Origin: Microtetraspora fusca
GTDB lineage: Bacteria > Actinomycetota > Actinomycetes > Streptosporangiales > Streptosporangiaceae
Length of the DNA: 64,000 nt
NCBI RefSeq assembly: GCF_001570365.1
Contig: NZ_BBYK01000047.1
Location: 20,900-84,899, forward strand
Direction: 5' to 3'
Below, one piece after another: positions 12,976-62,337 of this stretch (the stretch's first letter is position 1; every line of letters begins with the position of its first letter). Under the pieces are notes generated by a model, which worked only from the letters and a program-made list of their open reading frames with translations, was not told where the DNA came from and ran no database searches. The translations under genes and the position numbers were made by a program.

Positions 12976-13905
12976 CTACCACGAAACCGCGATCTCACCA
13001 TTGAGCACCTTGATGGCGTTGGCGAGGCGAGCCTCGTTGAGCAGCCTGATCGTGTTCAGCCGGCCACGGTGATCTGTGATGATCTTGTTCTGGTGTTCGG
13101 TGTACACCGCCTCGCGTATGCCGTAGTAGTCGACCTCCCGGCGGCACGCGGAATCCGCGAGCGCGGTGCGGATCTCCTCCGGTGTGCCGCGTGGCGGTTC
13201 TATCTCGTCGTTCGCGGCGGTCGTCGCCCAGCGCGGGTCGCCCATCGCGTCGACCGGGGTCCGGTAGTCGAAGCCCGCCCGCTTCATGCAGTCGCTCCAG
13301 GACCGCTCGGCCGCCTTGACACGCTCGTCCTGCCAGGCCGCGTCTGACGCGTTGTCGGCCAGCCCTTGGACCTCCTTCCGGTTGAACGTCTTCGTGACCT
13401 CGGTGGCGGGAACGCCCTTGGCTCCCTGGTTGAGCACACTGTCCACCTTGGCCTCGCACCCGCCGGGCGGCACCGCCTTGCCGTGGAAGCGTTTGATCTT
13501 TCCCGTCAACACGTAGAACTGCTCATCGGTGACGGAGTACGGCTCGAAACCGTCCGTCGCCATAATCGACGCGTGCCCGGGCGGCCCGGCATATCCGTAC
13601 CGTCTGACCTGCCGATCGTCCATCCACCCCAGGTAATCGGCGTTCTTCGGATAGGTCGCCGGTTCGACGGCGGGCGCCTGGAAATCGATCCGGTACTGCT
13701 GCAGGCATTCCGTTATCAATGCGAACCGGGCGCGCAACACCTGTGCGCGATCGACAGGGCCGAGTTCGTAGGCGTCCAACGGAAGACTGAACGTGGGAAC
13801 GCCGTCTCCGAAGACGCCGCCGATCAGACCGCATCCCGCGAGCGTGGCACCACACAGCGCCACCATGGCATTCCTGAGACCTCTGCGCATGGTCGTAAAG
13901 ATCAT
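12976..13905 (-). CDS. hypothetical secreted lipoprotein
   Basis: 309 residues. MRRGLRNAMVALCGATLAGC is a signal peptide with a lipobox (LAGC), so the mature protein is lipid-anchored from Cys25. The rest is soluble. It includes SWSDCMKRAGFDYRTPVDAMGDPRW, a motif shared by a group of actinomycete lipoproteins of unknown role. ATG at 13905 and a second Met (residue 6) are both possible starts; neither has a good ribosome site. No partner gene. I do not recognise a function. Confidence 0.75.
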   Translation of the reverse strand: MIFTTMRRGLRNAMVALCGATLAGCGLIGGVFGDGVPTFSLPLDAYELGPVDRAQVLRARFALITECLQQYRIDFQAPAVEPATYPKNADYLGWMDDRQVRRYGYAGPPGHASIMATDGFEPYSVTDEQFYVLTGKIKRFHGKAVPPGGCEAKVDSVLNQGAKGVPATEVTKTFNRKEVQGLADNASDAAWQDERVKAAERSWSDCMKRAGFDYRTPVDAMGDPRWATTAANDEIEPPRGTPEEIRTALADSACRREVDYYGIREAVYTEHQNKIITDHRGRLNTIRLLNEARLANAIKVLNGEIAVSW

Positions 13906-14143
13906 CAGTCATTTGTATCCGACCAGCGGGAGTCACGTCTGTCAGAATCCGGAAAAATCCGCCCCGACTCGAACAGCGTGAAAGACACGCGTGCACCGGA
14001 AAAGACCTGGCCCCCAAGCCGCTACAGACGACCGGCGCCAAGAGAGGAAGGAGCAGGAGGAAATGGCCGAACTTCATGATCCCTGCCCCGAACAGCCTCT
14101 GGCGACCCTGCGGGTCAATACAGACAGGCGTTGACGATGTGGA

Positions 14144-15040
14144 TCAGGTCTGGTCGGTGAGGAGGTCGTGGGCTGCCTTGGTGAAGGCGCGGACGCGGGC
14201 GGTGGTGTTGTCGGCTTGCCACAGCAGGCCCCATTGCAGGCGTGGGGCGTCGTCGAAGGGGACGTAGGCGACGTCGGGGCGGGCGTAGTAGCGCCTGGCG
14301 TGTGCGCCGACGGGGAAGACGCCGCGGCCGGCGCCGATGAGGGTGAGCATCTCGTTGAAGGTGGAGGCCGAGGGGCCGGGGGCGATCGGTTGTCCGGACG
14401 GGGTGGTGCTGGGGGTGCGGTCCCGGCGCACGGAGTCGGGCAGGGTGTCGGGAAGTTGGAGCAGGGTGACTCGGGCGAGGTCCTCCAGACTGACCGATGT
14501 GCGGCGTGCAAAGGGATGCACGGCGGGGACGGCGAGCATGCGCACCTCCGACACCAGGACCGGCCCGGTGGCGATGCCGGGGTCGTCGATGGGGAAGGTG
14601 CCCAGGGCTATGTCGACGTCGCCGTTGCGCAGCCAGGGCATCAGGTCGATCATCTGCGCTTCACGTAGCTGGACGTCGCAGTCGGGATGGCGTCGGCGGA
14701 ACAGCTCGGTGGCGCCGGCCAGCAGTTGACCGCCCGCGGCGCCGACGAAGGCGACCCGCAGCAGACCGGTCACGTCGCGGCCACTGGCGATGGCCTGCTC
14801 GAACGCGGCGGTGAGCTGGTCCCAGGCCGGGCGCAGGCCCTCGTGCAACCGCCGCCCGGCCGCGGTCAGCTCCACGCGGCGGCTGGTGCGGTTGAACAGC
14901 GGTACCCCGGTGCGGCGCTCCAGCTTGGCGATCGTCTGGCTGATCCGGGCGGTGGACACGTGCAGCCGTTGCGCCGTCCGGCCGAAATGCAGTTCCTCGG
15001 CGAGGGTGAGAAACACCTCCACTTCGTGACGCTCCAGCAT
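14144..15040 (-). CDS. LysR family transcriptional regulator
   Basis: 298 residues. The N-terminal winged helix (MLERHEVEVFLTLAEELHFGRTAQRLHVSTARISQTIAKLE) is classical LysR, followed by a periplasmic-binding-protein-like effector domain (LLRVAFVGAAGGQLLAG). It is divergent from the SnoaL gene at 15160 across 119 bases, the usual position for a LysR activator of its neighbour. It probably controls the SnoaL/BBE-oxidase group; the effector is unknown. Confidence 0.9.
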   Translation of the reverse strand: MLERHEVEVFLTLAEELHFGRTAQRLHVSTARISQTIAKLERRTGVPLFNRTSRRVELTAAGRRLHEGLRPAWDQLTAAFEQAIASGRDVTGLLRVAFVGAAGGQLLAGATELFRRRHPDCDVQLREAQMIDLMPWLRNGDVDIALGTFPIDDPGIATGPVLVSEVRMLAVPAVHPFARRTSVSLEDLARVTLLQLPDTLPDSVRRDRTPSTTPSGQPIAPGPSASTFNEMLTLIGAGRGVFPVGAHARRYYARPDVAYVPFDDAPRLQWGLLWQADNTTARVRAFTKAAHDLLTDQT

Positions 15041-15159
15041 GACCCTCCATCGTTAAGGCGCGCTTCACGATCGTTGCACAGGGTCGCATTGATCCGCCAG
15101 TCGCCCGGGCAGAGGGTGGAAGCGCTCGTCAACCCCTCTGATCTGCACGGGAGCACACC

Positions 15160-15666
15160 ATGTGCACTATCGATGAACATGCGTTGTCCACTTTGGCCGC
15201 CGACACTGAAGCCGTCGTCGTGGAGCTGCGGGACCGGACCGAAATTCTGGACGCGCTGTACCGGTTCGGCCTCGGCCAGGACCTCAAGGACGCTGAGCTG
15301 TTCGCCTCGGCCTTCGCCGCCGACGCCGAGGTGGATTTCCGCCCCGCGGCCGCCAAGTGGGGCGGGCGTCCGCCGCTGCTGTCCGGACGGGACACGATCG
15401 TCACCACCATCCTGCGGACGTTCGCCGGCCGCGTCGACACCACGCACCAGGTCACCAACCCGCGCATCGCCATCGACGGCGACACCGCCCGCCTGACCGC
15501 CCTGGTGGAGGCCCAGCACCTGCTCACCGCCGACCACTCCACGTTCGCCCTGTTGAAGAACCCGTACGACGTCGAACTGGTCCGCGACGGGCGGCGCTGG
15601 GTCGTACGCCGGATGCGCATCGACAACGCCTGGTACCTCGGCGACCCGACCGCGATCTTCGGCTGA
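15160..15666 (+). CDS. SnoaL-like (NTF2-fold) protein
   Basis: 168 residues. EILDALYRFGLGQDLKDAELFASAFAADAEVDF and later VTNPRIAIDGDTARLTALVEAQH are the cone-shaped NTF2 fold of the SnoaL/nuclear-transport-factor-2 group, which contains cyclases, isomerases and hydroxylases of polyketide and steroid pathways. It follows the divergent LysR gene and precedes a BBE-type oxidase 192 bases downstream, so the pair may work on one aromatic substrate. The catalytic residues cannot be named from sequence alone. Confidence 0.85.
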   Translation: MCTIDEHALSTLAADTEAVVVELRDRTEILDALYRFGLGQDLKDAELFASAFAADAEVDFRPAAAKWGGRPPLLSGRDTIVTTILRTFAGRVDTTHQVTNPRIAIDGDTARLTALVEAQHLLTADHSTFALLKNPYDVELVRDGRRWVVRRMRIDNAWYLGDPTAIFG

Positions 15667-15770
15667 CGCTCGCGATCCCCCGGCCGAGCGGATCCCCGGT
15701 CATCTCGCGCGTGTGTCATCACACGCCGCGCCGTTTCATCTTTCTTAGTTCTTCACGGAGGTGTGTTCCA

Positions 15771-15830
15771 TTGCCGGCGTTGCGTGCCGCCACCACCGAC
15801 GGCCTGCGCATCGCCGTGTTCGCCGCCTGA
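15771..15830 (+). CDS. possible 19-residue peptide ORF
   Basis: TTG at 15771 lies 7 bases after CGGAGGTGTG, a very good ribosome site, and the frame ends with TGA at 15828-15830 (begins MPALRAATTDGL, ends AVFAA). It sits between the SnoaL and oxidase genes. It could be a leader peptide, the stump of a deleted gene, or an upstream ORF that couples translation to the oxidase. There are no family matches. Confidence 0.3.
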   Translation: MPALRAATTDGLRIAVFAA

Positions 15831-15858
15831 CCTGCCGCTCCCAACCCAAGGAAGATCA

Positions 15859-17163
15859 ATGAATGAGCTGAACAGCCTGCGGTCCGCCGTCCGAGGACGG
15901 ATCCTGCTGCCCGGCGACCCCGGCTTCGACTCCGCCCGCCGTCCCTGGAACCTGGCCGTCGAGCAGCCCGTGGCGGCCGTGGTCGAGGCCGCCGACGCCG
16001 ACGACGTCGCCACGCTCGTCCGGCACGCCCGCACCGCCGGACTGGGGATCGCCACCCAGCCCAACGGGCACGGCGCCACTGGCCACACCGACGGCACCGT
16101 CCTGCTACGCACCCGACGGCTGGACAGCCTGCACATCGACCCCACCACGCGCCGCGCCCGCATCGGCGCAGGCGTCGCCTCCGGCCGGCTGCAGGCCGCC
16201 GCCGCACCGCACGGCCTGACCGGCCTGCCCGGCAGCTCCCCGATCGTCAGCGTCACCGGCGTCGCCCTCGGCGGCGGCCTGAGCTGGTTCGGCCGCAAAC
16301 ACGGCTGGGTCGCCGACAACGTCACCGCCCTCGACATCATCGACGCCGACGGCCACCCGCGGCACATCACCGCCGGCACCGACCCCGACCTGTTCTGGGC
16401 GCTGCGCGGCGGAGGCGGCGACTTCGCCATCGTCACCGCCCTCGAACTCGCCCTGCACCCCGCCCCGCACCTGTACGGCGGCCGCATGCTGTGGACGGCC
16501 GAGCACGCCCCCGACGTGATGGACGCCTACCGGCAGATCACCGCCACCGCCACCGACGAACTGACCCTCTGGCTGGACCTGCTGCACTTCCCCGGCTCCG
16601 ACCCCATGGTCGCCATCGACGCCACCTACCTCGGCGACGAAGACGAGGCGCGCGACCTGCTGCGTCCGCTGGACCGCCTGCCCGCCCCACTGTCCGACGG
16701 CAGGGCGACCATGACGGTCGCCGAACTCGGCACCATCACCGCCGAACCCACCGACCCCGGCCCCGGCTCCTCCCGCGCCGAACTGCTCACCGCACTCGAC
16801 GACACCACCGTCAAGACCCTGCTCGCCGACCCGATCGCCCCGCTGCTGAGCGCGCAGATCCGGCACCTGGGCGGCGCGTTCACCCACCCCTCCGACTCCC
16901 CGCACGGCCCCCTGACCGAGCCCTACGCCCTCTACCTGTTCGGCGTCCCCACCGACCCGGCCGTCGCAGCCGCGATCGCGACCAAGCAGCGGGAACTCGC
17001 CGACGCCCTCCCCGTCAGCGGCCGCAAACCCCTCACCTTCCTCAACCCCGGCGAGACCGCGGCCGACGCCTTCACCCCCGCCGCACTGGAGCGCCTGCGC
17101 GCCATCAAGCGCCACCACGATCCGCACGACATCTTCCGCAGCAACTTCCCGATCGGCCGCTGA
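15859..17163 (+). CDS. FAD-linked oxidase, BBE (berberine bridge enzyme)-like
   Basis: 434 residues from ATG at 15859, with AAGGAAG upstream. The FAD_binding_4 (PCMH) domain includes GIATQPNGHGATGHTDG, whose His is the expected 8-alpha covalent FAD ligand, and VSVTGVALGGGLSWFGRKHG. The BBE C-terminal signature is RHHDPHDIFRSNFPI. The Cys that forms the second covalent FAD bond in bicovalent enzymes is replaced (GLPGSSPIVSVTG), so FAD should be monocovalent. These enzymes use O2 to oxidise sugars, alkaloids or polyketide alcohols. It lies in the LysR/SnoaL group; substrate unknown. Confidence 0.87.
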   Translation: MNELNSLRSAVRGRILLPGDPGFDSARRPWNLAVEQPVAAVVEAADADDVATLVRHARTAGLGIATQPNGHGATGHTDGTVLLRTRRLDSLHIDPTTRRARIGAGVASGRLQAAAAPHGLTGLPGSSPIVSVTGVALGGGLSWFGRKHGWVADNVTALDIIDADGHPRHITAGTDPDLFWALRGGGGDFAIVTALELALHPAPHLYGGRMLWTAEHAPDVMDAYRQITATATDELTLWLDLLHFPGSDPMVAIDATYLGDEDEARDLLRPLDRLPAPLSDGRATMTVAELGTITAEPTDPGPGSSRAELLTALDDTTVKTLLADPIAPLLSAQIRHLGGAFTHPSDSPHGPLTEPYALYLFGVPTDPAVAAAIATKQRELADALPVSGRKPLTFLNPGETAADAFTPAALERLRAIKRHHDPHDIFRSNFPIGR

Positions 17164-17177
17164 GCCCGGCGACCGGT

Positions 17178-17214
17178 CCGGAGCGGCGGGGCGAAAGCCG
17201 GCCCGCCGCTCCGG
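17178..17214. terminator. bidirectional hairpin terminator
   Basis: CCGGAGCGGCGGG (17178-17190) and its exact complement CCCGCCGCTCCGG (17202-17214) enclose an 11-nt loop. It lies between the stops of the convergent BBE oxidase and FHA-dioxygenase genes, so it can serve both. Confidence 0.7.
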
Positions 17215-17262
17215 CCGCCGGTCCGCGGATCGGCGCCGCCGATCCCTTGTCGCGATCGAGCG

Positions 17263-20200
17263 TCAGTCGGGAAGCGGTAGTGGACCGCCGTGGCCGGGCA
17301 GGCCCCGGTCGGCCGGGATCGCCTCCTCTGCCGCACCGTCGGCGGTGATGCCCTGGCCGCGGGTCTGCTCGGCGAGGCGCTGGTAGTAGGTGGAGACCGC
17401 GGCGAGCGCCTCGCGCACCGCGGTCAGCAGCGTGGCTCCCGCCTGCTCGACGACGTCGCCCTCGTGGATCTCGAACGCGCGGATTCCTTCCAGCACAGCG
17501 GTTTTCAGGTCGCGCAGCAGTTGGACGTCAACGTGCGCGTAGGTGCGGCACATCGCCGTGACTCGCCGGAAGTCGTCCCCGGCGAGCAGGAGCTCCTTGA
17601 CGGCGGATACGGAATGCCGGACCAGCCCGACATCCGGCCGCGCGGACATGGCGGCGAGATCGGTGTCGAAGGACCGGATGTCCAGGTGCGGGTCGCAGAA
17701 GCCGACGGTGAGCTGCCACAGGGTGCGCAGGTCCTCGTGCACCAGCCCGTCCAGATAGCTGACGAGGAACCGCCGGTGCGCCTCGAGGACGTACTGCGCC
17801 TTGAAGGGCGTCAGCTCCTGCGGGTCTTCGCCCAAGGTGGTGACCGACGTGGTGAATCCGTAGTCGGCGGCCAACGCGTTTTCCATGCCGACCAGCAGGT
17901 ACACGAACCGCACCCAGGTCCGGAACAGTTCCTCCAGCGGCAGCGCGCGCAGACCGTCCTCGGTGAGCACCACGCCCCACCGGGCGCCGAACTGCAGCCG
18001 GCGCAGGTGGCCGATCTGGTACATCGCGAGTTGGGCGTCGATCTCGGCGTGCGCGTGGTGCAGCACCTTTCGATACGCCGCGGTCGCGTCGAGCCCGACG
18101 TGATTGCGGACGATGTGCGGGCCGCCGATGTGCAGGTGCAGGAATTCGCCGACGTCGAACACCGCACCGCCGATCGCCATCCAGTAGCCCGCGTCGGGGG
18201 TGTTGTGCTGTGCCAGATCCGACACCTCGAAGCGGGGACCCTGCTGCGCGTGACCCATGTAGGTGGTGAAGACGTCCTGGCCCAGACGTCCGTCGGCCAC
18301 CAGTCGGCGGAGGAACTCGCGGCCGTCGCCGGGCACGATGTCGGTCAACGCCTCGAGTACGGAGACGGCGAACCGTGCGCTGCCGCACACGTAGACGAAT
18401 GCGCCGCGCCCGCCGTCGTCGGTGGACCGCAACAGCTCCCAGAGTGCGTCCGCCTCGGCGCGGATCACGTCGTCCACCCGGCGCCCCTGTCCGGTTTGGA
18501 CGACGTGACGCCGGCCGTCGAATCCGATCGCGGCGTCGGCGCGGGAGAACGCGACGGAGAGTTTCAGCCGGCCCGCGGCCGCCGCCGCGTCCAGGCCGGT
18601 GTGCTCGACGAACTCCTCCGGCGTCCGGATGCCCAGATAGAGCCGGTTCTCGCCCGGCCCGGTGCGCGCGGCGACGAACCCCAGGAACGGGGCGATCCCG
18701 GAACCCGCCGCGAACATGACGACGGGCCGGTCCGGATCGGCCGGCAGCCGGAACCGCGGCGTGGGGACGATCTGCAGCGACAGCCGGTGCCGCCCCTCGA
18801 CGCTCGCCCGGCGCAGGAAATGCGATGCCGTGCCTTGTCGCTCCCGCGGGTACGACCACGGCGTCCGGGCGGAGGTGTAGTCGAGACCGGCGACCACCAG
18901 CTGCAGCGTGGTGGCCGGTTGGCCGGGCGGCGGCGCCGAGGCGATCGAATACAGCCGGAACGGCTCGGGCGGAATCACCGCGCAGAACGCGTCGTCCTCG
19001 CGTGGATCGGCCTTCCACAGCCGGGTGACGTCATATCCGCCCGCGTACAACAGGTTCAGGACGTCCCACAGCTCCCACTGGTCCTCCATACGGGCGTCCA
19101 CCACTCGCTGCCACGAGCCCACGGCTGTCAGTTTCACCAGCCGTTTCGCCACCTCCCGCCCCATCGGCCGGAGCCGGGCGAAGCGCAGCAATGTCCGCAG
19201 GGGCAGCACGTCGACCTCGCCGTAGCCCGCCCGGCAGGCCACCGCAGCGCGCCACTTCGGGGTGAGCCGTACCAGCTCGTCGCCGGTCGCCTGCAGGGCG
19301 GCGACAGTGCGGCGCACCAACTCGTCGTCGTTCTCGGCCAGCACGCCGACCCGGTCACCGGGCAAGTGGTGGACGCCATGCCCAGTGACGTCGAGCTCCA
19401 GATAACAGGTCCAGGCGCCGGACTCTCCGGTGACGACACGGCCCCGACGGGCGGTCCCGAACACCACCGGCGGACCCACCGGCGGGCGGCGCTCGTCACG
19501 GGCGACGGCCAGCTCGCCGTCCACCTTGTCCCAGGTCCGGTCCTTGAACAGTCCGGTGAACCGGGCGCCGGTCGTCACCTGGCGGCCGACCTTGAACGCC
19601 ACCTCCAGAAAGCCGTACGTCTTGATGCGGTGCAGGCCCATCCAGCCGCGGTCGCCCACATAGGCGTCGAGCATGGCGTTGTAGATGCCGCGCAAGGTCC
19701 TGTTGCGGGTGTCCTCGACGTACTGGCGCACCGACACCTCACGCAACGCGGCCACCAGCTCCTGCCAGTGCCGCGGGAAGAATCCGGAGAGGTAGACGCT
19801 CTGCCGCCCGACCAGCGAGCCGAAGTCGCGGCGCTCGAGAAACGCGTCCAGCGCGTGGATCTGCGGTTGCGCGGTGCCGCTCGGGCTGGGTGCGCCGTCG
19901 AAGATCGGGACGCCCGCGGTGCCGACCGTCTTGGCCCACAGCACCTGGTCGAGCGGATGCCGGGCGCGGAGGTTGGGATCGATCTGCGGATAGATGGCCT
20001 GGGTGACGTGCTGCAGCCGGTCGAGGATCACCAGTAGCGCGCTCTCCAAGGCGGCCGGATCGTCCGCGACAACGGCCTCCTGAGCGTCCAGCATGGCGCC
20101 CAGCACGGGCGTGAGCTCCATCGCGAACTCGGTGGTGACCAGGTAGAACACCCGCTCCGCCGGGTTGTTCCAGGCCGGAACGAGCAGGTCCATGTTGTCC

Positions 20201-21009
20201 AGCGCCCGCGGCCCGGCGGGATCGCGCAGCCGCCAGTTGTAGAAGAACAGATCGATGTAGGAGACGGCCGGGATCTTCTTGCCCAGCCGGCGCGAGACCG
20301 TGGTCCACGGTCGCAGCAGCGAATCGGGCAGAGCGGTCGGCGGATCGATCGCCATGTACTGGTAGGCGTGGGCGAAAACGCCGAGCAGAGTCGAGGCGCG
20401 TAACAGGTATCGGTCGGGCAACGCCTCGGGCCGGGCGTCGAGCACCGGCATCGCGTCGAACGCCCGGCGCAGCGACAGCCGGCGGAACAGCTCGGGGAGC
20501 CGGTCGGTCATCTCGTCCCAGGCTCGGTGCGATTCCGGGAAGGCCAGCAGCGGCGGCTCGACCGGCAGAAATCCGTGCGCGAGCGACAGGAATCCGTCGA
20601 GTTCGTGCCCGACCCGCCGGTTGTGCTCCTCGGCGGCCTCCACCACGCGTCGTGCGGCGACGCGCGGCGGCCCGACCGGCCGCAGCACGGTCAGCTGGCC
20701 CGGATCGACGAGCGCCGTCACATCCGGGTCGAGGAACGTCCACGTCAGCTCGTATCGGCCGATGCGCACCCGATCCCCGGGGGCGAGCACCTGGCGCGTC
20801 ACCCGCGTGTCGTTCACGTAGGTTCCGTTGGAGCTGCCGAGATCGGTGAGCACCAGCTGGTTGTCGACGGCCTCCAGCCGCGCGTGGCGCCGGGAGACGG
20901 TGCCGTCGTCCAGCACCACCGCCGCCGCGCCGCTGTCCCGGCCGAGAGTGGCCGGCAGCGTGCACACCCGCTCGCTGGACTCGTGAGTGTGCCGATCGGT
21001 GAGGATCAA
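17263..21009 (-). CDS. FHA - indoleamine-dioxygenase-like heme domain - FAD/NADPH reductase - cytochrome b5 multidomain protein
   Basis: 1248 residues. (1) FHA domain, about 1-100, with GRDS, SRRHARL and LGSSNGTYVN, binds phosphothreonine. (2) Residues about 130-490 follow indoleamine 2,3-dioxygenase: PAVSYIDLFFYNWRLRDP, GTAQPQIHALDAFL and a helix with His460 (WMGLHRIKTYGFLE) at the proximal heme position. Human IDO1's tryptophan-binding Arg231 aligns with a non-Arg (about W358), so the substrate may not be tryptophan. (3) About 515-915, the FAD/NADPH half of a diflavin reductase: LPGDRVGVLAENDDELV, RLYSIAS, FAAGSGIAPFLGF, YVCGSARF; no FMN flavodoxin domain. (4) About 935-1000, cytochrome b5 with heme His960 in LHLHIGG and another in VLHHAHA. 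(5) About 250 helical residues of unknown role. Electrons could pass NADPH, FAD, b5, then dioxygenase heme within one chain. Starts at TTG, 7 bases after the CBS gene's stop. Confidence 0.85.
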   Translation of the reverse strand: MILTDRHTHESSERVCTLPATLGRDSGAAAVVLDDGTVSRRHARLEAVDNQLVLTDLGSSNGTYVNDTRVTRQVLAPGDRVRIGRYELTWTFLDPDVTALVDPGQLTVLRPVGPPRVAARRVVEAAEEHNRRVGHELDGFLSLAHGFLPVEPPLLAFPESHRAWDEMTDRLPELFRRLSLRRAFDAMPVLDARPEALPDRYLLRASTLLGVFAHAYQYMAIDPPTALPDSLLRPWTTVSRRLGKKIPAVSYIDLFFYNWRLRDPAGPRALDNMDLLVPAWNNPAERVFYLVTTEFAMELTPVLGAMLDAQEAVVADDPAALESALLVILDRLQHVTQAIYPQIDPNLRARHPLDQVLWAKTVGTAGVPIFDGAPSPSGTAQPQIHALDAFLERRDFGSLVGRQSVYLSGFFPRHWQELVAALREVSVRQYVEDTRNRTLRGIYNAMLDAYVGDRGWMGLHRIKTYGFLEVAFKVGRQVTTGARFTGLFKDRTWDKVDGELAVARDERRPPVGPPVVFGTARRGRVVTGESGAWTCYLELDVTGHGVHHLPGDRVGVLAENDDELVRRTVAALQATGDELVRLTPKWRAAVACRAGYGEVDVLPLRTLLRFARLRPMGREVAKRLVKLTAVGSWQRVVDARMEDQWELWDVLNLLYAGGYDVTRLWKADPREDDAFCAVIPPEPFRLYSIASAPPPGQPATTLQLVVAGLDYTSARTPWSYPRERQGTASHFLRRASVEGRHRLSLQIVPTPRFRLPADPDRPVVMFAAGSGIAPFLGFVAARTGPGENRLYLGIRTPEEFVEHTGLDAAAAAGRLKLSVAFSRADAAIGFDGRRHVVQTGQGRRVDDVIRAEADALWELLRSTDDGGRGAFVYVCGSARFAVSVLEALTDIVPGDGREFLRRLVADGRLGQDVFTTYMGHAQQGPRFEVSDLAQHNTPDAGYWMAIGGAVFDVGEFLHLHIGGPHIVRNHVGLDATAAYRKVLHHAHAEIDAQLAMYQIGHLRRLQFGARWGVVLTEDGLRALPLEELFRTWVRFVYLLVGMENALAADYGFTTSVTTLGEDPQELTPFKAQYVLEAHRRFLVSYLDGLVHEDLRTLWQLTVGFCDPHLDIRSFDTDLAAMSARPDVGLVRHSVSAVKELLLAGDDFRRVTAMCRTYAHVDVQLLRDLKTAVLEGIRAFEIHEGDVVEQAGATLLTAVREALAAVSTYYQRLAEQTRGQGITADGAAEEAIPADRGLPGHGGPLPLPD

Positions 21010-21016
21010 CCGGAGC

Positions 21017-21460
21017 TCAGGAATGGTAGATCACCGCCCGGCACAGATCGGCCCGGGACAGTGTGCCCACGAGGGTTCCGTCGTCGACCACGGGAAGCCT
21101 TCGGATCCCGCGGTCGATCATCACGATCGCCGCCCGGGCGAGTTCGTCGACCGATCGGACCGTCACCGCGTCGCGCACGACGAGGGGGTCGATGACGCGG
21201 TCGGCGAGAGCGCGGCCCCGCTCCAGGAAGATCTGGAACGCTCCGGCGAGCGTGCCGCCGGCGGCGGTCACGTCGTCGAAGCCGGGCAGCATGGCCCGCA
21301 CCAGGTCCTCCTCGGACAGTGACCCGACGAACCGGCCGTCGTGGTCCAGGACCATCAGTTGGCCGACCTCCGACACGCTGATCAACTCAGCTGCCCGCCG
21401 AATGGTCGCGCCGAGCCGTATGTAGGCCGGGAACGCCGTCATGACGTCGCTGACGAGCAC
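21017..21460 (-). CDS. tandem CBS-domain protein
   Basis: 147 residues from GTG at 21460, with GGGAGGTGGC directly upstream; a longer GTG start at 21496 has no ribosome site. Two CBS motifs are visible: VSDVMTAFPAYIRLGATIRRAAELI with GQLMVLDHDGRFVGSLSEEDLVRAML, then VRDAVTVRSVDELARAAIVMID with RRLPVVDDGTLVGTLSRADLC. CBS pairs bind adenosine nucleotides and regulate partner enzymes. The stop is 7 bases from the start of the FHA-dioxygenase gene, so they form an operon; this protein may sense the energy state for it. That role is inference. Confidence 0.87.
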   Translation of the reverse strand: MLVSDVMTAFPAYIRLGATIRRAAELISVSEVGQLMVLDHDGRFVGSLSEEDLVRAMLPGFDDVTAAGGTLAGAFQIFLERGRALADRVIDPLVVRDAVTVRSVDELARAAIVMIDRGIRRLPVVDDGTLVGTLSRADLCRAVIYHS

Positions 21461-22240
21461 GCCACCTCCCAGGTCCACCCCGCGGTCGTCCCGCACAATC
21501 GGTTACCTGGCCACTCATCCGAAAGAATCATCCGCGAGTATAAATTCACTCTGAATGCGGTGTACACCCTCTCGAACGCGGTCGGCACGTACGTCAGGTC
21601 GGCAAACCAACCGCCGGTTCGATGCCGACGCGTCGAAGTCGCGTTTCAGCAGTTCAGCCGGTTGCTTCCCCGGCGCCTGGTGCGAACGACCAGGGAGCGA
21701 TTGTCTCGGCCGGTGCTCGACGGACCCACGTTCAATCCCATCGAATGCGTTCGCCGGCACTTTCACGCGGATGTCTCTCCACACCCGGACGAGTTGATCT
21801 TCGTCGGCCGAGTTACGCATAGACCGAAAACGGCCGTCCGCGTCTCGTGGCGGCCGCTTGCCGCTTTGAATGTTCCGCCCGCTCGCCGTTGAAGGACGGA
21901 AAAGGCCATCCGGCGCCACATCCGTAGATCGCCTTCGGGTGTGCCGGACGCAGCGGCATCGGAGGCGTGATGGTCGGCGAGTGTCCCTACTCCCCTACGA
22001 TCCCGTCATGTCCTGGGATGCGAGCCGACCGCGTCGACCACGCGGATCGCCGGTCCCGCGCGATCTCCGGAACCGGCTGGATCAGCAGTCGCCCTTGGGG
22101 ACGTGACGCGGCTTCGCGCAGGACCACGGCGAAGCCCGATGCCGATCGCCAGGTGCTGGTTGAGGTCGTCTCGGATCAGCACGATCGAGGCGCCGGCGCG
22201 CGTGAGTGCTGGCAGACGTACGAGACAGGTTGAAAAAATC
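21461..22240. other. AT-richer gap with IS debris
   Basis: About 780 bases between the CBS gene and the next operator. It contains the IS3-type transposase remnant at 21500-21740. I find no supportable gene in the remainder; short frames lack ribosome sites and motifs. The CBS/FHA promoter should lie in the first part. Confidence 0.5.
21500..21740 (-). pseudogene. IS3-family transposase (OrfB) remnant, frameshifted
   Basis: On the minus strand AELLKRDFDASASNRR in one frame continues as WFADLTYVPTAFERVYTAF and then NLYSRMIL in another. This is the DDE-domain opening of IS3/IS150-type transposases (NxxWVADxTYVPT, first catalytic Asp in ADLTYV). A frameshift after NRR and loss of both ends make it non-functional. 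Confidence 0.7.
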
Positions 22241-32723: not shown

Positions 32724-33197
32724 TCAGCTTCCGAGGCGTTCGTAGAACCGGCGGGCCCGGCGGGGCGCCCCGGCCGGCGCGTCGGCGATCAGGTCGGCGA
32801 GCGTCTGTGCGGCCAGTTCTCGGCGCCAGGCCAGCTCGGCGCGGCGCATGGCCGTGGCGATGCCGCATGGACGTGCGAACTCGCGGGCGGGGGCCTCGAC
32901 TCCCGCGCCCTGCCGGCGGATCTCGGTGCACCGGAACGCCTCGTCCCGCCCCTCGACCGCCGCGACGACGTCCATCAGTGTGATCTTCTCGGGCGGCCGG
33001 GCCAGCCGGAAACCGCCCTGGACGCCCGGCGTCGAGGTGAGGATGCCCGCGCGGACCAGTGCCTGCAGGCGTTTCTTCAGATAGACCGGCGGCAGTTCGA
33101 ACAGGGCCGCCAGCCTGCCCGTGGACACCGGCGCCTCATCGTCCAGCCATGCCAGGACCAGGCAGCAGTGCAGGCCCCACTCGACTCCTTCACCCAT
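32724..33197 (-). CDS. Rrf2 family transcriptional regulator
   Basis: About 157 residues; ATG at 33197 or GTG at 33203 could start it. The winged helix is STGRLAALFELPPVYLKKRLQALVRAGIL, with the wing GVQGGFRLARPPEKITLMDVVAAVEG. Two Cys, in FRCTEIRR and ARPCGI, are separated by about 20 residues, which is not the three-Cys iron-sulfur pattern. A perfect palindrome lies immediately upstream and a variant precedes the MFS gene, so it should regulate both. Confidence 0.87.
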   Translation of the reverse strand: MGEGVEWGLHCCLVLAWLDDEAPVSTGRLAALFELPPVYLKKRLQALVRAGILTSTPGVQGGFRLARPPEKITLMDVVAAVEGRDEAFRCTEIRRQGAGVEAPAREFARPCGIATAMRRAELAWRRELAAQTLADLIADAPAGAPRRARRFYERLGS

Positions 33198-33207
33198 TCG
33201 CACAAAG

Positions 33208-33224
33208 GGGATATTACATATCCC
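33208..33224 (-). promoter_or_regulatory. Rrf2 autoregulatory operator
   Basis: GGGATAT-TAC-ATATCCC, a perfect 7-3-7 palindrome 4 bases upstream of the GTG start and 10 upstream of the ATG. A one-mismatch version lies at 32642-32658. Confidence 0.75.
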
Positions 33225-33329
33225 GGTTCACCGGTGCGCGACGGGCACCCGAAGAGCACACGCTCGGGGGACGCCGACATGCCGGCAGTCAGGAGCGTCG
33301 CCATGAAGCACGACCGACGGAACAGGCCG

Positions 33330-33749
33330 TCAAAGTTCCGTTTGGTGGGAGGGAAGAGCGGCGGCCATGACCCCGCGCACGGCCTGACCGATGCGCTCAG
33401 CGGCCTGATCGGGATCGGGTCGGCCGGCGTCGAGCCATGCGATGACGGCTTCCAGGGTGAAGGTGGGGATCAGGTTGGCGGCCCAGTCCAGCCACGGGCC
33501 CGCGGGGATGCGGCGGGCGAGGTTGCGGCGGGCGACATCGCGGGAGGCGGCGGTGACGGAGTCGATCAGGTCGCGGAAGTCGGGCTCGCGGGCGGCGTAG
33601 CGGAACAGCAGCTTGAAGCCGTCGGGGTCGACCGCGGCGGCGCGCAGCAGGGCGGGGATGGCGTCGCCGTCGAAGTCGTCGGTGCCGACGGCCTCTGCCA
33701 GGCGGGTGCAGGCGCGGTCGAGCACGGCCCGGTACAGGTCGGCCTTGGA
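33330..33749 (-). pseudogene. TetR regulator lacking its DNA-binding domain
   Basis: The minus-strand frame reads SKADLYRAVLDRACTRLAEA, then FRYAAREPDFRDLIDSVTAAS. This is the region from the end of the helix-turn-helix through the ligand domain of a TetR protein. Everything before SKADLY is missing: at 33747-33752 the sequence switches to the divergent P450 gene. A GTG at 33725 could start a shorter 131-residue protein without DNA-binding ability. Confidence 0.8.
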
Positions 33750-34793
33750 TATGAGGAGGTACGCCGACTACTGGATGACGACCGTCTCGGCCGTGCCCAC
33801 CGCGATCCCGAACGTGCCTCCCGTACCGGGGAGTCGGCGATGTTCGGCGGCCCGCTGGGCGGCTTCGACACCGAGCAGGCCGACCACCGCAGGATGCGCT
33901 CGCTGCTGCAGCCGCACTTCTCGCCGAAACGCATGCGCGCGCTACGCGAGCGCGTCGAGACGCTGACCGCGAACTTGCTGGACGAGCTGGCCGCCGCAGG
34001 GCCGCCCGCCGACCTGCACGCCGCGCTGGCGCTGCCGCTGCCGATCGCCGTCATCTGCGAGCTGCTCGGTGTCCCGTACGCCGACCGCGCGCAGTTCAGG
34101 GAATGGACGCAGGCCGCGGCGGACACCACCGACCGCACCCACTCCGAGCAGGGGTTGGCCGAGCTGTTCGGCTACGGGCAGCGGCTGGTGGCGCGCAAGC
34201 GGGCCGAAGGGGACCCGGACGCCGACGTGATCTCCCGGCTGGCCGCCACCGATGGAGTCAGTGACGACGAGGCCGCCGCGATGGGCATGTTCCTGCTCTT
34301 CGCCGGCCACGAGACCACGGTCACCGCGATCGGCATGGGCACGCTGTGGCTGCTGGCCACCCCCGGGCAGTGGCAGGCCCTGGTGGACGACCCGTCACGG
34401 ATCGACGCAGCGGTCGAGGAGATCCTGCGCGCGCCCCGTCTGGGCGGCGGGGGCATCCCCCGCTACGCCCGTGCCGACCTGGAGATCGGCGGAGTCCACG
34501 TCCGGGCCGGCGACCTGGTGCTGCTGGACACCGGCGCCGCCAACCACGACCAGGCCGTCTTCGCCGACCCCGACCGCTTCGATCTCACCCGCCCGGCTGT
34601 GCCGCACCTGTCCTTCGGCCACGGAGCGCGCTACTGCATCGGCGCACCACTGGCCCGCATCGAGCTGAAAGCTGTCTTCTCCCAGCTGGCCGCCCGTTTC
34701 CCCACCCTGAAACTCGGCTGCGCGGTGGAGGAGCTGACCTTCAACCGGCACGTGCTCGCCGGCGGCCTGACCGCCCTGCCCGTCACCTGGTGA
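33747..34793 (+). pseudogene. cytochrome P450 lacking its N-terminus (CYP105/107-like)
   Basis: The frame begins homology at YEEVRRLLDDDRLGRAH and runs to the end: ADHRRMRSLLQPHFSPKRMR, I-helix LLFAGHETTVTAIGMG (intact AGHET), a K-helix region EEILRAP with the usual ExxR arginine retained (EILR), and heme loop FGHGARYCIGAPLARIE with the axial Cys. About the first 50 residues are absent. The frame stays open upstream only because it is antisense to the TetR remnant. ATG at 33838 could give a shorter product that would lack the A-helix and first sheet, so activity is doubtful. Confidence 0.8.
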
Positions 34794-59124: not shown

Positions 59125-60873
59125 TCATCCGGCCTCGGTCCCGGTCCCGGCAGTCCCCTCGGCCAGCATGGCGGCCAGGAGCGGACGGCGCAGCTTCCCG
59201 CTCGACGTCCTCGGCAGCATCCCCGGCCGTACGACATCCACCCGGCCGGGGCGGACGCCGGTGCCGGCGGAGACGGCGCGCTCCACCTCCCGGCGCAGCA
59301 GCTCGGCCCGATCGGCGTCCCGGTAGAGCGGGGTCTCGACCACGAGCACCAGCCGCTCGGTGCCGCTGTCCGCGTCCGGCAGGCCGAGCGCCGCCACTCC
59401 GGTGGCCCTGACCCCGTCCACGGCGGCGGCGGCCAGTTCGAACAGCTGCGGCTGGTGGTTGCGCCCGGCGACGATGACGAGGTCCTTGCTCCTCCCGGTG
59501 ACGAACAACTCGCCGTCGAGCGTGAACCCCAGGTCGCCGCTGTCCAGCCAGCCGTCGCGCGGCGCGGCCGCGCCCCCGGGCTCGCCCTCGGCCAGATAGC
59601 CGGCCATCATCGAGTCCCCGGACAGCAGCACCCTGCCGACGACGCCGTCGGGCAGCCCGGCTCCGTCGCCGTCGACGACGCTCACCTTGACGCCGGGCAC
59701 CGGCCGCCCGGACGACACGAGATCCCGTCCGTCGTCCTCACCGGCCGGCGGCTGTACGACGCCGTCGCGCGACAGCGCCGAGGCGGACACCGTCGCGATC
59801 CGGGGCACCGCCCGCGCCTCGGAGAACGTGGCGGCCAGCCCGACCTCCGCGAGGCCGTAGCAGGACCGCATCGCCTCGGGGCGGAAGCCGTGCGGCCCCA
59901 ACGCCGCCTGCCAGGCCCGGATGGTGGCCGCGTCCACCACCTCGGCCCCGTTGAACGCCACCCGCCAGCAGCCAAGGTCGAGCCCGTCCAGCTTCATGCG
60001 GCCGGCCATGGAGGCGACGAGCCGGTAGGCGAAGTTCGGCGCGGGTGAGACCGTGGCCCGGTAGCGGTGCACCAGGTCCAGCCATGTCCGCGGCCGCGCG
60101 GTGAAGGACAGCGGGCTGACGAGCACCGCCGGCACGCCGTAGACGAAGGTCGTCAGTGTGGCGCCCACGAGGCCCATGTCGTGGTGGAGCGGCAGCCAGC
60201 TCACCGCGACATCATCACTCAGCAGCGGGGTGGCCCGGCCGATGGCGTCCACCGCGGCGCGCAGCCCGCGATGGCTCAGCGCGATCCCCTTGGGGGCCGA
60301 GGTGGTGCCCGAGCTGAACTGGATCAGCGCGGTGTCGCCGGGATCGGCTGCCGCGCCGACGAGCGGTGCCCCTTGCCCCTGGTACGGCGGGCACACGACG
60401 GAGGTCCGCGGGCCGGCGGCCTCCTCGGCGAGCGGGCGCAGTTCGGGATCGCAGACGAGTACGGCGGGCCGGACCGTCCGTACGATGTGCCGCGTCCGGT
60501 CCAGCCAGGCGTGGTGGCGGCCGAAGGCCGTCGGCGGCTCGACCAGAACCGGCACGGCGCCCATCAGCACGGCGCCGTACAACGCGGCGAGCAGGTCGGG
60601 CGAGGTGTCCAGGCACAGGCAGGCCCGGTCTCCGGGCTCCAGCCCGGCGTGGGCCAGGGCCGCCGCGGCGGTCCCGGCCCGCGCGTACAGGTCGCCCACG
60701 GTCAGGCGGTCCTCGCCCGGAGGGCGCTCCGGCAGGTAGTAGGCGACCGTGTCGGGCTCCCGGGCCGCCCGCGCGGCGAGGACCGCCGCCAGGTTCTCCG
60801 CGCCGGGCGGCGGCTCGGCGGGAGCGGCCTCGGGCCGCTCCCCTCTCCGGTCGGGGTGGATGTCGAGTGTCAT
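59125..60873 (-). CDS. fatty acyl-AMP ligase (FAAL-like adenylate-forming enzyme)
   Basis: 582 residues from ATG at 60873 (MTLDIHPDRRGERPEAAP). P-loop LIQFSSGTTSAPKGIALSHRG; SWLPLHHDMGLVGATL and SPLSFTARPRTWLDLVHRYRA then SPAPNFAYRLV are the FAAL pattern. CYGLAEVGLAATFSE and DSGDLGFTLDGELFVTGRSKD complete the core; the C-terminal Lys lies in PRTSSGKLRR. FAALs make acyl-adenylates for loading on carrier or PKS proteins. The start overlaps the aminotransferase stop by ATGA. It probably activates the starter acid of the neighbouring type III PKS pathway. Confidence 0.87.
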   Translation of the reverse strand: MTLDIHPDRRGERPEAAPAEPPPGAENLAAVLAARAAREPDTVAYYLPERPPGEDRLTVGDLYARAGTAAAALAHAGLEPGDRACLCLDTSPDLLAALYGAVLMGAVPVLVEPPTAFGRHHAWLDRTRHIVRTVRPAVLVCDPELRPLAEEAAGPRTSVVCPPYQGQGAPLVGAAADPGDTALIQFSSGTTSAPKGIALSHRGLRAAVDAIGRATPLLSDDVAVSWLPLHHDMGLVGATLTTFVYGVPAVLVSPLSFTARPRTWLDLVHRYRATVSPAPNFAYRLVASMAGRMKLDGLDLGCWRVAFNGAEVVDAATIRAWQAALGPHGFRPEAMRSCYGLAEVGLAATFSEARAVPRIATVSASALSRDGVVQPPAGEDDGRDLVSSGRPVPGVKVSVVDGDGAGLPDGVVGRVLLSGDSMMAGYLAEGEPGGAAAPRDGWLDSGDLGFTLDGELFVTGRSKDLVIVAGRNHQPQLFELAAAAVDGVRATGVAALGLPDADSGTERLVLVVETPLYRDADRAELLRREVERAVSAGTGVRPGRVDVVRPGMLPRTSSGKLRRPLLAAMLAEGTAGTGTEAG

Positions 60874-62337
60874 GGGAGGATGAAGGGGAATCCGTGTTTG
60901 TCCAGTTCCAGGGCGGAGTCGGTGACCGCCGCGCACAGCTCGTCGATGTCGGCGTCGTCGTGCGCGTCCCCGGTGTAGAACATGGGCAGGCTGAGCGTGT
61001 AGACGCCGCGCCGGCGCAGCATCAGCGTGAGCAGGAACAGCCCGACCGGGTTCACCGCCGCCGCGAAGGTCCGGTAGTCGTCGTAGGAGTCCTCCGCGAC
61101 GAACCCCAACGTCCCGGCGAAGTCGCCGAAGCCGAGCAGCCGCAGCGGGATGCCGGTCTCGGGCGCGGAACGCGGCCAGCCGCTCCTGGACCCTGGCCAC
61201 CTTGGCCCGCGTCCGCTCGTAATAGGCGTCGCCGGCCTCGCGCAGCAGGCTGAGCGACGCGAACGACGCCGCCAGCGCGAGCTGGTTCCCCGAGTGGGTG
61301 TTGCTGGCGTACGTCTTGCGGCCGATGTCGTCGAGGGGCTGGCCCGAGGTCAGCAGCCGGTCCAGCAACTCGGCGCGGCCACCGACCACCGACATCGGGA
61401 TCCCCAGCCCGGAGACGACCTTGCCGTACGTGTAGAGATCGGCGGGGATGCCGAAGCGGCCGGCCGCCCCGGCGGCGCCGAACCGGAACCCGGTGAGCAC
61501 CTCGTCCAGGACGAACGGCACGCCGAGCGCCCTGCACCGCTCGGCGATCTCGATGACCTCGGGAACGGTCCGTTCGGGGAACGGGAAGGACTGGCACACG
61601 GGATCGGCGATCACGCAGGCCAGGTCGTCGCGGTGCCGGTCGATCAGCGCTCCGGCCACCGCGGCGTCGTGCGGCAGCACCAGCACGTCGCCCGGCTCGA
61701 CCCCGGCGAAGGCGGGCAGCCTGCGGACGCCGTCCTCGCCGATCTCGGGAAAGGGCTGGACGCGGGGGTGGCCGTGCGCCATGAACGCGGTGTTGTGCGC
61801 GGCGATGTCGTGGATGCCGTGCCAGCAGCCCTCGAACTTGGCCACCAGCCGGCGCCCGGTGTGCGCCCGGGCCAGCCGGATGGCGGCGTTCGTGGCGTCC
61901 GTGCCCGAGTTGAGGAACGCGAACTTCTCGCAGTGGGGCACCAGCTCCTTCATGAGCCGGGCGAGGTCGAGCTCGATCGGGTTGAGGTAGCCGTTGCCGG
62001 TGCTGCGGGCGAGCTGGTCGCGGACGAACTCGACCACGCGGGGCGGGTTGTGGCCCCAGAGAGACTGACCGCCGAAGCCGAGGTGGAGGTCGAGATAGGT
62101 GTTCCCGTCCACGTCGAGGAGTCTGCCGCCGGACGCCTCCGCGACCACGAGCGGGAACGGCGGGGCGTGGAACGGCAGGAAGACGTCGTTGGTCACGGAC
62201 AGCTCGCGGACCTGACCGGCCAGCTCACCCGAGCGTCGCTGCCGTTCGGACAGCTCGGTGAGCAGGTCGGCCATCCATTGCCGGCCGAGCAGGTCGTCGA
62301 TCAGCTCCTGGGCGGGCGTGGCGGTGGGAGGGGACAT
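60870..62337 (-). pseudogene. class III aminotransferase, paralog 1, frameshifted by one base
   Basis: From ATG at 62337 the protein follows paralog 2 (62348-63802): GTDATNAAIRLARAHTGR; DEVLTGFRFGAAGAAGRFG; PLP Lys in LYTYGKVVSGLG. At 61161-61163 it has GGG where paralog 2 has GG. This shifts the frame after LAAFRA; the true C-terminus (GFVAEDSYDDYRTFAAAVNP to HGFPFILP) continues in the next frame to TGA at 60870. The unshifted frame runs on into the acyl ligase. A base-call error or a real inactivation are both possible; flanking sequence is otherwise intact, so the gene is young if dead. GSA-aminotransferase-like enzymes transfer amino groups to or from aldehydes or ketones. Confidence 0.82.

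What the first reader, a model, noticed from the sequence alone, without database searches (positions are those of the whole stretch)
17263..21009. A single protein with FHA, indoleamine-dioxygenase-like, FAD/NADPH reductase and cytochrome b5 domains
Five modules are readable in one 1248-residue chain. IDO enzymes need an external reductant (cytochrome b5 or P450 reductase) to keep the heme ferrous; here both donor types are fused on. The reductase half lacks the FMN flavodoxin domain, so the route is NADPH to FAD to b5 to dioxygenase heme. An N-terminal FHA domain implies control by or docking to a phosphothreonine partner. I recall no described enzyme with this layout. IDO1's Arg231 is not conserved, so the substrate may be new. 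The domain calls are secure; the electron route and novelty are inference.
Basis: partly seen in the sequence, partly recalled or inferred. Interest (0 to 1): 0.93.

Follow-up and report, generated by a model that had tools for sequence, protein, structure and literature searches.

The report
Self-powered IDO-like heme enzyme family
One large actinobacterial protein carries an indoleamine-dioxygenase-like heme domain together with the NADPH-to-cytochrome-b5 wiring that such enzymes normally borrow from other proteins; relatives, usually beside a gene for a likely small-molecule sensor, turn up in several bacterial phyla, and I found no description of them.

Summary
The ORF (17263-21009, minus strand, 1248 aa) is real, and the reported modules are confirmed: FHA, IDO-like, a P450-reductase-type FAD/NADPH module without FMN domain, cytochrome b5.

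It is not a one-off: one genome scan gave 56 loci in at least five phyla. A CBS gene lies just upstream on the same strand in 55 of 55 reductase-bearing loci (fragments excluded) with upstream sequence. The core (IDO-reductase-b5-helical) is constant; FHA is accessory (34 of 54). The proximal His460 and both b5 histidines are invariant (34 of 34), but the Arg231 and GTGGS-loop features of IDO/TDO are absent. Two actinobacterial relatives are IDO-b5-helical without reductase, which supports b5 as direct donor. TDO is encoded separately in 12 of 19 hosts tested, so kynurenine production is probably not its job.

Best reading: a self-sufficient, signal-gated heme oxygenase (NADPH to FAD to b5 to IDO-type heme), substrate unknown. 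Architecture, residues and gene pair are shown; electron route, reaction and gating are inferred. Ten paper searches found no description.

The parts
17263..21009 (-). Whole fusion gene, 1248 aa, FHA-IDO-reductase-b5-helical domain; TTG start
   Evidence: homologues
20758..20949 (-). FHA domain (residues 21-84), accessory in the family
   Evidence: Pfam E 6.1e-18; 34 of 54 relatives' N-termini; phosphothreonine-pocket motif (recalled pattern) in 33 of 54
19495..20664 (-). IDO-like heme domain (residues about 116-505)
   Evidence: Pfam E 1.2e-28; 34-row profile finds IDO2 and IDO1 in the PDB at 2.9e-36 and 9.3e-32
19630..19632 (-). His460, candidate proximal heme ligand (IDO1 His346 position)
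   Evidence: invariant in 34 of 34; the PDB profile alignment ends just before it, so the match to His346 is by position
18253..19467 (-). P450-reductase/sulfite-reductase-type FAD + NADPH module (residues about 515-919), no FMN domain
   Evidence: FAD/NADPH residues
18004..18222 (-). Cytochrome b5 domain (residues 930-1002) with His960 and His984
   Evidence: Pfam E 5.5e-13; both His invariant in 34 of 34
17344..17988 (-). Sixth domain (residues 1008-1222): beta hairpin and long helices, no known family
   Evidence: A4; model pLDDT 93.9; no match at E <= 0.001 in Pfam, PDB sequence or PDB fold
21017..21496 (-). Upstream CBS-pair protein; the GTG at 21460 behind a GGAGG is a likelier start than 21496 (inference from the sequence and from the shorter homologues)
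   Evidence: PF00571 E 6.3e-21; sequence; 55 of 55 loci
21010..21016 (-). 7-nt gap between CBS stop and fusion TTG (likely translational coupling)
   Evidence: identical offset of the fusion's open frame in 27 of 54 loci
21537..21566 (-). Weak sigma-70-like promoter match upstream of the CBS gene
   Evidence: 9 of 12 matches; 1 found against 0.3 expected; not evidence of function

Best explanation
A self-sufficient, signal-gated heme oxygenase. NADPH reduces the FAD of a P450-reductase-type module; FAD passes single electrons to the fused cytochrome b5; b5 reduces the heme of the IDO-like domain, which binds O2 and oxidises a small, probably aromatic or indole-like molecule that need not be tryptophan. 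Because electrons are hard-wired, the domain need not be a pure dioxygenase: continuous supply would also allow monooxygenation. The helical C-terminal domain, which stays beside b5 even in relatives without reductase, is proposed to dock or order b5. The CBS partner, and FHA, receiver or cyclic-nucleotide-binding domains in different branches, are proposed to gate the enzyme. Shown: architecture, conserved cofactor residues, conserved gene pair, reductase-less natural variants. Inferred: electron route, oxygenase reaction, gating, docking role. Unknown: substrate.
For: Domains: (of 34 cores at E <= 0.001: IDO 34, b5 34, NAD_binding_1 33, FAD_binding_1 30). Cofactor residues: H460 34/34, D388 34/34, b5 H960 and H984 34/34, R685 34, Y687 33, S688 33, C875 34, S822 33, R823 26 of 34. 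Whole-core model pLDDT 88, pTM 0.88; reductase fold = BM3 FAD domain. Reductase-less IDO-b5-helical proteins L088 and G629. CBS gene upstream in 55 of 55 loci; REC on 6 of 54 CBS proteins; cyclic-nucleotide domains on L077; FHA on 34 of 54. Literature: b5 and P450 reductase support IDO1 (PMC4191572, PMC13142367, passages); an electron donor drives the related MarE to monooxygenation (PMC12312684, passages); human IDO has monooxygenase activity (PMC12921851, abstract).
Against: No spectroscopy, turnover or binding data. The fold search of the whole core listed only reductase-like chains in its 50 rows, so the IDO fold was tested by sequence profile, not by structure; atomic positions and FAD-b5-heme distances could not be inspected. 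R823, the NADPH 2'-phosphate candidate, is kept in only 26 of 34. No known CPR-type FAD domain that passes electrons straight to b5 is cited here. Most CBS-adjacent loci are close relatives, so 55 is not 55 independent events. FHA, REC and cyclic-nucleotide domains are each in part of the family only.
Confidence: 0.55

Rival explanations
1. A tryptophan 2,3-dioxygenase after all: an IDO with its reductants fused on, making N-formylkynurenine; the pocket changes are mere divergence.
For: PF01231 match E 1.2e-28. Some IDO pocket positions are kept: F288 (IDO1 Phe163) 31/34, S377 (Ser263) 30/34. Two hosts, G787 and G794, have kynureninase above cut-off but no TDO match.
Against: No conserved Arg in the Arg231 segment and no GTGG motif. 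TDO is separate in 12 of 19 hosts and sits beside kynureninase in the window's genome (contig C95). G196, G785, G786 and G793 show neither TDO nor kynureninase at E <= 0.001. No kynurenine gene was seen among the conserved neighbours.
Confidence: 0.12
2. A heme redox or gas sensor, or an NO/O2-handling protein (flavohemoglobin-like), in which the IDO fold binds ligand but does not oxygenate an organic substrate.
For: Signalling modules around it: CBS, FHA, REC, cyclic-nucleotide-binding domains. IDO-fold myoglobin exists in abalone (PMC4191572, passages). The Trp-binding features are lost.
Against: The IDO domain has many invariant family-specific polar or aromatic residues (Y216, D253, N258, W358, K360, K463; 34/34 each), as expected of a substrate pocket; a complete reductase is more than a sensor needs.
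Confidence: 0.17
3. A detoxifying or thiol-linked redox enzyme, acting on reactive amines/imines or on low-molecular-weight thiol metabolites.
For: RidA-family gene upstream of the CBS gene in 9 of 37 diverse loci (Pfam checked in L067 only). BshA and BshB1 above cut-off downstream in L060, the same four gene clusters in L063, L065 and L071.
Against: Each association holds in a minority of loci (9 and 4 of 37) and was not seen in the window's clade, where only the CBS gene recurs.
Confidence: 0.08

Closest known systems
Indoleamine 2,3-dioxygenase (PF01231; IDO1/IDO2), of the histidyl-ligated heme-dependent aromatic oxygenases
   Same: Sequence profile over most of the domain, proximal His and Asp274-type position kept, flexible loop predicted after the His
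   Different: No Arg231, no GTGGS loop; fused to its own reductase and b5; extra helical domain; CBS neighbour
MarE, PrnB and other heme-dependent aromatic oxygenases (TDO-like)
   Same: IDO/TDO-related chemistry; MarE shows reductant-dependent monooxygenation and an altered GTGGS loop (SLGGR; PMC12312684, passages)
   Different: Stand-alone enzymes as described there; not compared with the window protein by any search
P450 BM3, SiR flavoprotein and NADPH-P450 reductase (FAD/NADPH half)
   Same: FAD/NADPH module by sequence and fold; BM3 is likewise a self-sufficient heme enzyme
   Different: No FMN domain; b5 takes the place after FAD; catalytic heme domain is IDO-type, not P450
Ncb5or, nitrate reductase, flavohemoglobin (recalled, not tested)
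   Same: Flavin module coupled in one chain to b5 or to a gas-binding heme
   Different: Other flavin-module type and order, other catalytic domain

Membership tests
Indoleamine 2,3-dioxygenase | PF01231 profile above its cut-off | tested here: met
   100.4 bits against 26; 34 of 34 cores match at E <= 0.001
Indoleamine 2,3-dioxygenase | Proximal heme His and the Asp274 position | tested here: met
   H460 and D388 invariant, 34 of 34; by sequence position only, IDO1 numbers recalled
Indoleamine 2,3-dioxygenase | Substrate residues Phe226, Phe227, Arg231 | tested here: not met
   no conserved Arg or Phe pair in residues 340-366; K360 is the invariant basic residue; local alignment to IDO1 is low confidence
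Indoleamine 2,3-dioxygenase | GTGGS/GTGGT active-site loop | tested here: not met
   no GTGG in residues 436-497 of 34 rows; T-x-G-G-F-like in many, TTGARF in the window
Indoleamine 2,3-dioxygenase | IDO fold by structure comparison | tested here: inconclusive
   the 50 rows listed for the whole core are reductase-like; the other aligner was not available
Indoleamine 2,3-dioxygenase | L-Trp to N-formylkynurenine activity | not testable with these tools
   needs enzyme assay
Diflavin reductase (CPR/SiR/BM3 reductase) | FAD- and NADP-binding modules with RxYS, GxxPF and Cys-Gly motifs (recalled) | tested here: met
   R685 34, Y687 33, S688 33, G769/G771/P774 34, C875/G876 34, S822 33, R823 26 of 34; fold
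Diflavin reductase (CPR/SiR/BM3 reductase) | FMN (flavodoxin) domain | tested here: not met
   no such family
Cytochrome b5 | Profile and two axial His | tested here: met
   E 5.5e-13; H960 and H984 34 of 34
FHA domain | FHA profile and phosphothreonine-pocket motif | tested here: met
   window E 6.1e-18; 34 of 54 relatives, motif 33 of 54; partner unknown
CBS-domain regulator (neighbour) | CBS pair | tested here: met
   54 of 54 partners scanned match PF00571; ligand not testable

The most novel reading that the evidence does not exclude
A new, phylum-crossing class of self-sufficient heme oxygenase, the IDO-fold counterpart of P450 BM3: NADPH-FAD-b5 delivers electrons so that the IDO-type heme works as a sustained monooxygenase on an unknown substrate, held under on/off control by a near-obligatory CBS partner and by interchangeable FHA, receiver or cyclic-nucleotide domains, with a new helical domain that docks b5.
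Probability: 0.35. Interest if true: 0.88.

Novelty: new variant of a known kind. Interest (0 to 1): 0.72.

Why it matters
What reduces IDO in cells is still open (PMC13142367 calls it unclear whether the known reduction systems act in vivo), and in the related MarE the electron donor shifts the outcome between mono- and dioxygenation (PMC12312684). A natural single-chain IDO-type protein with its own FAD and b5, plus a natural version without reductase, would make both questions testable in one scaffold. It would also add a BM3-like oxygenase scaffold, a new protein domain, and a case of bacterial oxygenase control by CBS/FHA modules.

Tried and rejected
Chance ORF or assembly chimera, and one-off fusion: rejected, full-length collinear homologues exist in many genera and several phyla. 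Kynurenine-pathway role by neighbourhood: no support. The kynureninase model also rings, mostly below cut-off, in 10 of 14 control genomes (2 over the cut-off), so I count only hits over it. C-terminal domain as a known fold: 4 weak PDB-sequence hits, best E 0.21; 749 fold matches at E <= 10, none at E <= 0.001. C-terminal domain as a mobile domain: found only in the fusion, in 3 of 396 phylum genomes, and in the reductase-less relatives. FHA as a constant part: rejected. Literature: the ten searches listed no paper on this architecture; several lists were capped (25 of 6,525, 12 of 254, 10 of 45) and most subscription papers are not held. I first noted a GGAG before the TTG; the window reads TGAG there, so that is withdrawn. 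The ORF picker took a wrong frame for L088; tblastn gave the right one.

Rows dropped: of 59 loci (56, the window, L026, L027) 34 are in the core alignment and tree; left out were near-duplicates and the partial or broken L076, L081, L082, L085, L086, L088. For the CBS count L076 (contig starts at the gene), L086 (contig starts inside the gene), L081 (isolated reductase fragment, no CBS found) and L088 (no reductase, no CBS found) were set aside, leaving 55.
Full report
OBSERVATION. The 1248-aa frame on the minus strand (17263-21009, TTG start) is open. Pfam gives FHA (21-84), IDO (143-449), FAD_binding_1 (534-584, below its cut-off), NAD_binding_1 (765-882, just above) and Cyt-b5 (930-1002). 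The reductase is firmer than Pfam suggests: sulfite-reductase-alpha and CysJ models run over it (E 1.2e-30, 4.1e-25, below their equivalog cut-offs), solved SiR and P450 BM3 flavoproteins match by sequence, and the model matches the BM3 FAD domain by fold (TM 0.75-0.78 by target length). No flavodoxin domain was found.

Residues 1008-1222 form a sixth domain, conserved in the 34 core proteins (invariant W1032, N1044, F1179, E1180) and predicted with pLDDT 93.9 as a beta hairpin followed by long helices, the last of 72 residues. No Pfam family, no convincing PDB sequence (best E 0.21), no PDB fold match at E <= 0.001. In 396 genomes of the phylum it was found in 3, each time in the fusion. Just upstream lies a CBS-pair protein (21017-21496, PF00571 E 6.3e-21) whose stop codon is 7 nt from the TTG.

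A FAMILY ACROSS PHYLA. Full-length relatives: three congeners (93-94%) and one other genus (84%) among 60 genomes. PF01231 over 396 phylum genomes hit 4; of its 5 hits 3 are fusions and 2 are high-scoring ordinary IDOs. The genome-contig scan, which used only two peptide patterns, gave 56 loci: Streptosporangiaceae and Micromonosporaceae (81-95% best segment), Trebonia (84%), Pseudonocardia (61-67%), Actinomycetospora (55%), and at 35-48% Chloroflexota, Armatimonadota, Chromatiaceae, proteobacterial, Polyangia and actinobacterial MAGs; many of the distant ones rest on metagenome bins, whose taxonomy may be wrong. The window's genus is Microtetraspora, judged from congeners whose contigs recur as named records. 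Of 34 representative cores, 34 match the IDO and b5 models, 33 NAD_binding_1 and 30 FAD_binding_1 at E <= 0.001.

ACCESSORY AND CORE PARTS. FHA is found on 34 of 54 N-termini. On the 34-row tree (15 rows labelled FHA) the label needs two changes and well-supported branches force both; the root is only a midpoint and L027, L077, L079 and L074 are long branches. L077 carries two cyclic-nucleotide-binding stretches at the C-terminus, L074 runs on in frame into a saccharopine-dehydrogenase-like part. Two relatives are IDO-b5-helical without reductase: L088 of Streptomyces coelicoflavus (694 aa from its likely start) and the unnamed actinobacterial genome G629 (698-aa frame, 61% identical to L088; the only such hit in 394 class genomes, against 4 with the full fusion). 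No CBS match was found near L088 (about 9.9 kb upstream held) or in L096 (about 1.5 kb). That b5 stays with IDO when the reductase is gone is my best evidence for b5 as the direct donor.

THE CBS PARTNER. Of 55 loci put through ORF clustering, 54 have a member of the CBS cluster upstream on the same strand, the fusion's open frame starting at most 283 nt after its stop; the 55th, L076, begins at base 6 of its contig. L082, not in the clustering, has it too. That makes 55 of 55 reductase-bearing loci with upstream sequence, fragments set aside. Two more fusion genomes, G452 and G561, also have it (L100, L099). In 27 of 54 the fusion's open frame starts at the same offset from the CBS stop. 54 of 54 partners match PF00571, 6 also a receiver domain. 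Many loci are close relatives, so these are not independent events; among 37 loci picked for diversity it is 36, L076 being the other.

OTHER NEIGHBOURS. A RidA-family gene precedes the CBS gene in 9 of 37 diverse loci (Pfam run on L067 only). Four loci share downstream gene clusters which in L060 include BshA and BshB1 above cut-off; a 391-405 aa member hit no family and resembles BshC only by eye. L058 has a Ser/Thr kinase 16 nt downstream, 1 of 55 loci. In the window's clade only the CBS gene recurs.

RESIDUES. Kept: H460 and D388 34/34, F288 31/34, S377 30/34. Invariant and family-specific: Y216, D253, N258, W358, K360, G378, K463. Lost: any conserved Arg in the Arg231 segment, and GTGG. 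The local alignment to IDO1 is of low confidence there and ends just before the proximal His, so position matches are provisional. The model (pLDDT 88, pTM 0.88) is disordered at 478-485, where IDO has its flexible loop. FAD, NADPH and b5 residues are largely kept; R823 in 26 of 34. Residue numbers of IDO1, CPR and b5 are recalled, except GTGGS/SLGGR, read in PMC12312684. The fold search listed only reductase-like chains for the whole core, so the IDO fold itself was not tested by structure.

METABOLIC SETTING. TDO is present in 7 of 8 genomes and 12 of 19 (4 genomes are in both sets; without the reductase-less host it is 11 of 18). Kynureninase over cut-off: 7 of 19. In the window's genome TDO and kynureninase sit side by side on contig C95. 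G196, G785, G786 and G793 match neither family, which is hard to square with a kynurenine role; G787 and G794 have kynureninase without TDO, which would fit one. Many are drafts, so absences are soft.

MECHANISM. From print: b5 and P450 reductase can support IDO1 (PMC4191572, PMC13142367, passages read); an electron donor pushes MarE to monooxygenation (PMC12312684, passages); human IDO has monooxygenase activity (PMC12921851, abstract). Beside the anatomy these suggest NADPH to FAD to b5 to IDO-type heme, with oxygenation of an unknown substrate and control through CBS and accessory signalling domains. Electron transfer, reaction and control are inference.

NOVELTY. Ten full-text searches of the held open library listed no paper on this architecture (some lists capped). 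The catalytic modules are known; the combination and the helical domain appear not to be described, so I file it as a new variant of a known kind.

Noticed in passing
L088:9941-12022 (+); L096 (G629): IDO-b5-helical proteins of about 700 aa without reductase and without a CBS gene found nearby.
   Followed up: partly
L077, C-terminal part to 6143; L074, C-terminal part to 6045: Fusion proteins extended by two cyclic-nucleotide-binding stretches (L077) and by a saccharopine-dehydrogenase-like part (L074, possibly a separate in-frame gene).
   Followed up: partly
L060, downstream 13570-19817; same clusters in L063, L065, L071: Bacillithiol genes (BshA, BshB1 over cut-off in L060) behind the fusion, plus a 1018-aa PIG-L protein that itself has a cyclic-nucleotide-binding domain.
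   Followed up: partly
L060 and L062 (one genome, G784): Two fusion paralogues in one Chloroflexota genome.
   Followed up: no
L081:5601-6476 (Acrocarpospora corrugata; G030): Isolated reductase piece, 88% identical to the window protein, without the other domains: remnant, rearrangement or assembly artefact.
   Followed up: no
L101-L103, L105 (genomes of 1.2-1.4 Mb): Stand-alone IDO-like frames of 390-438 aa in very small actinobacterial genomes of one family.
   Followed up: no
window 59128-62337 (-): Gene joining a class III aminotransferase to an AMP-binding (adenylation) domain, perhaps part of a biosynthetic cluster.
   Followed up: no
window 33168-34790 (+): Cytochrome P450 match in the C-terminal part of a 541-aa frame.
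   Followed up: no
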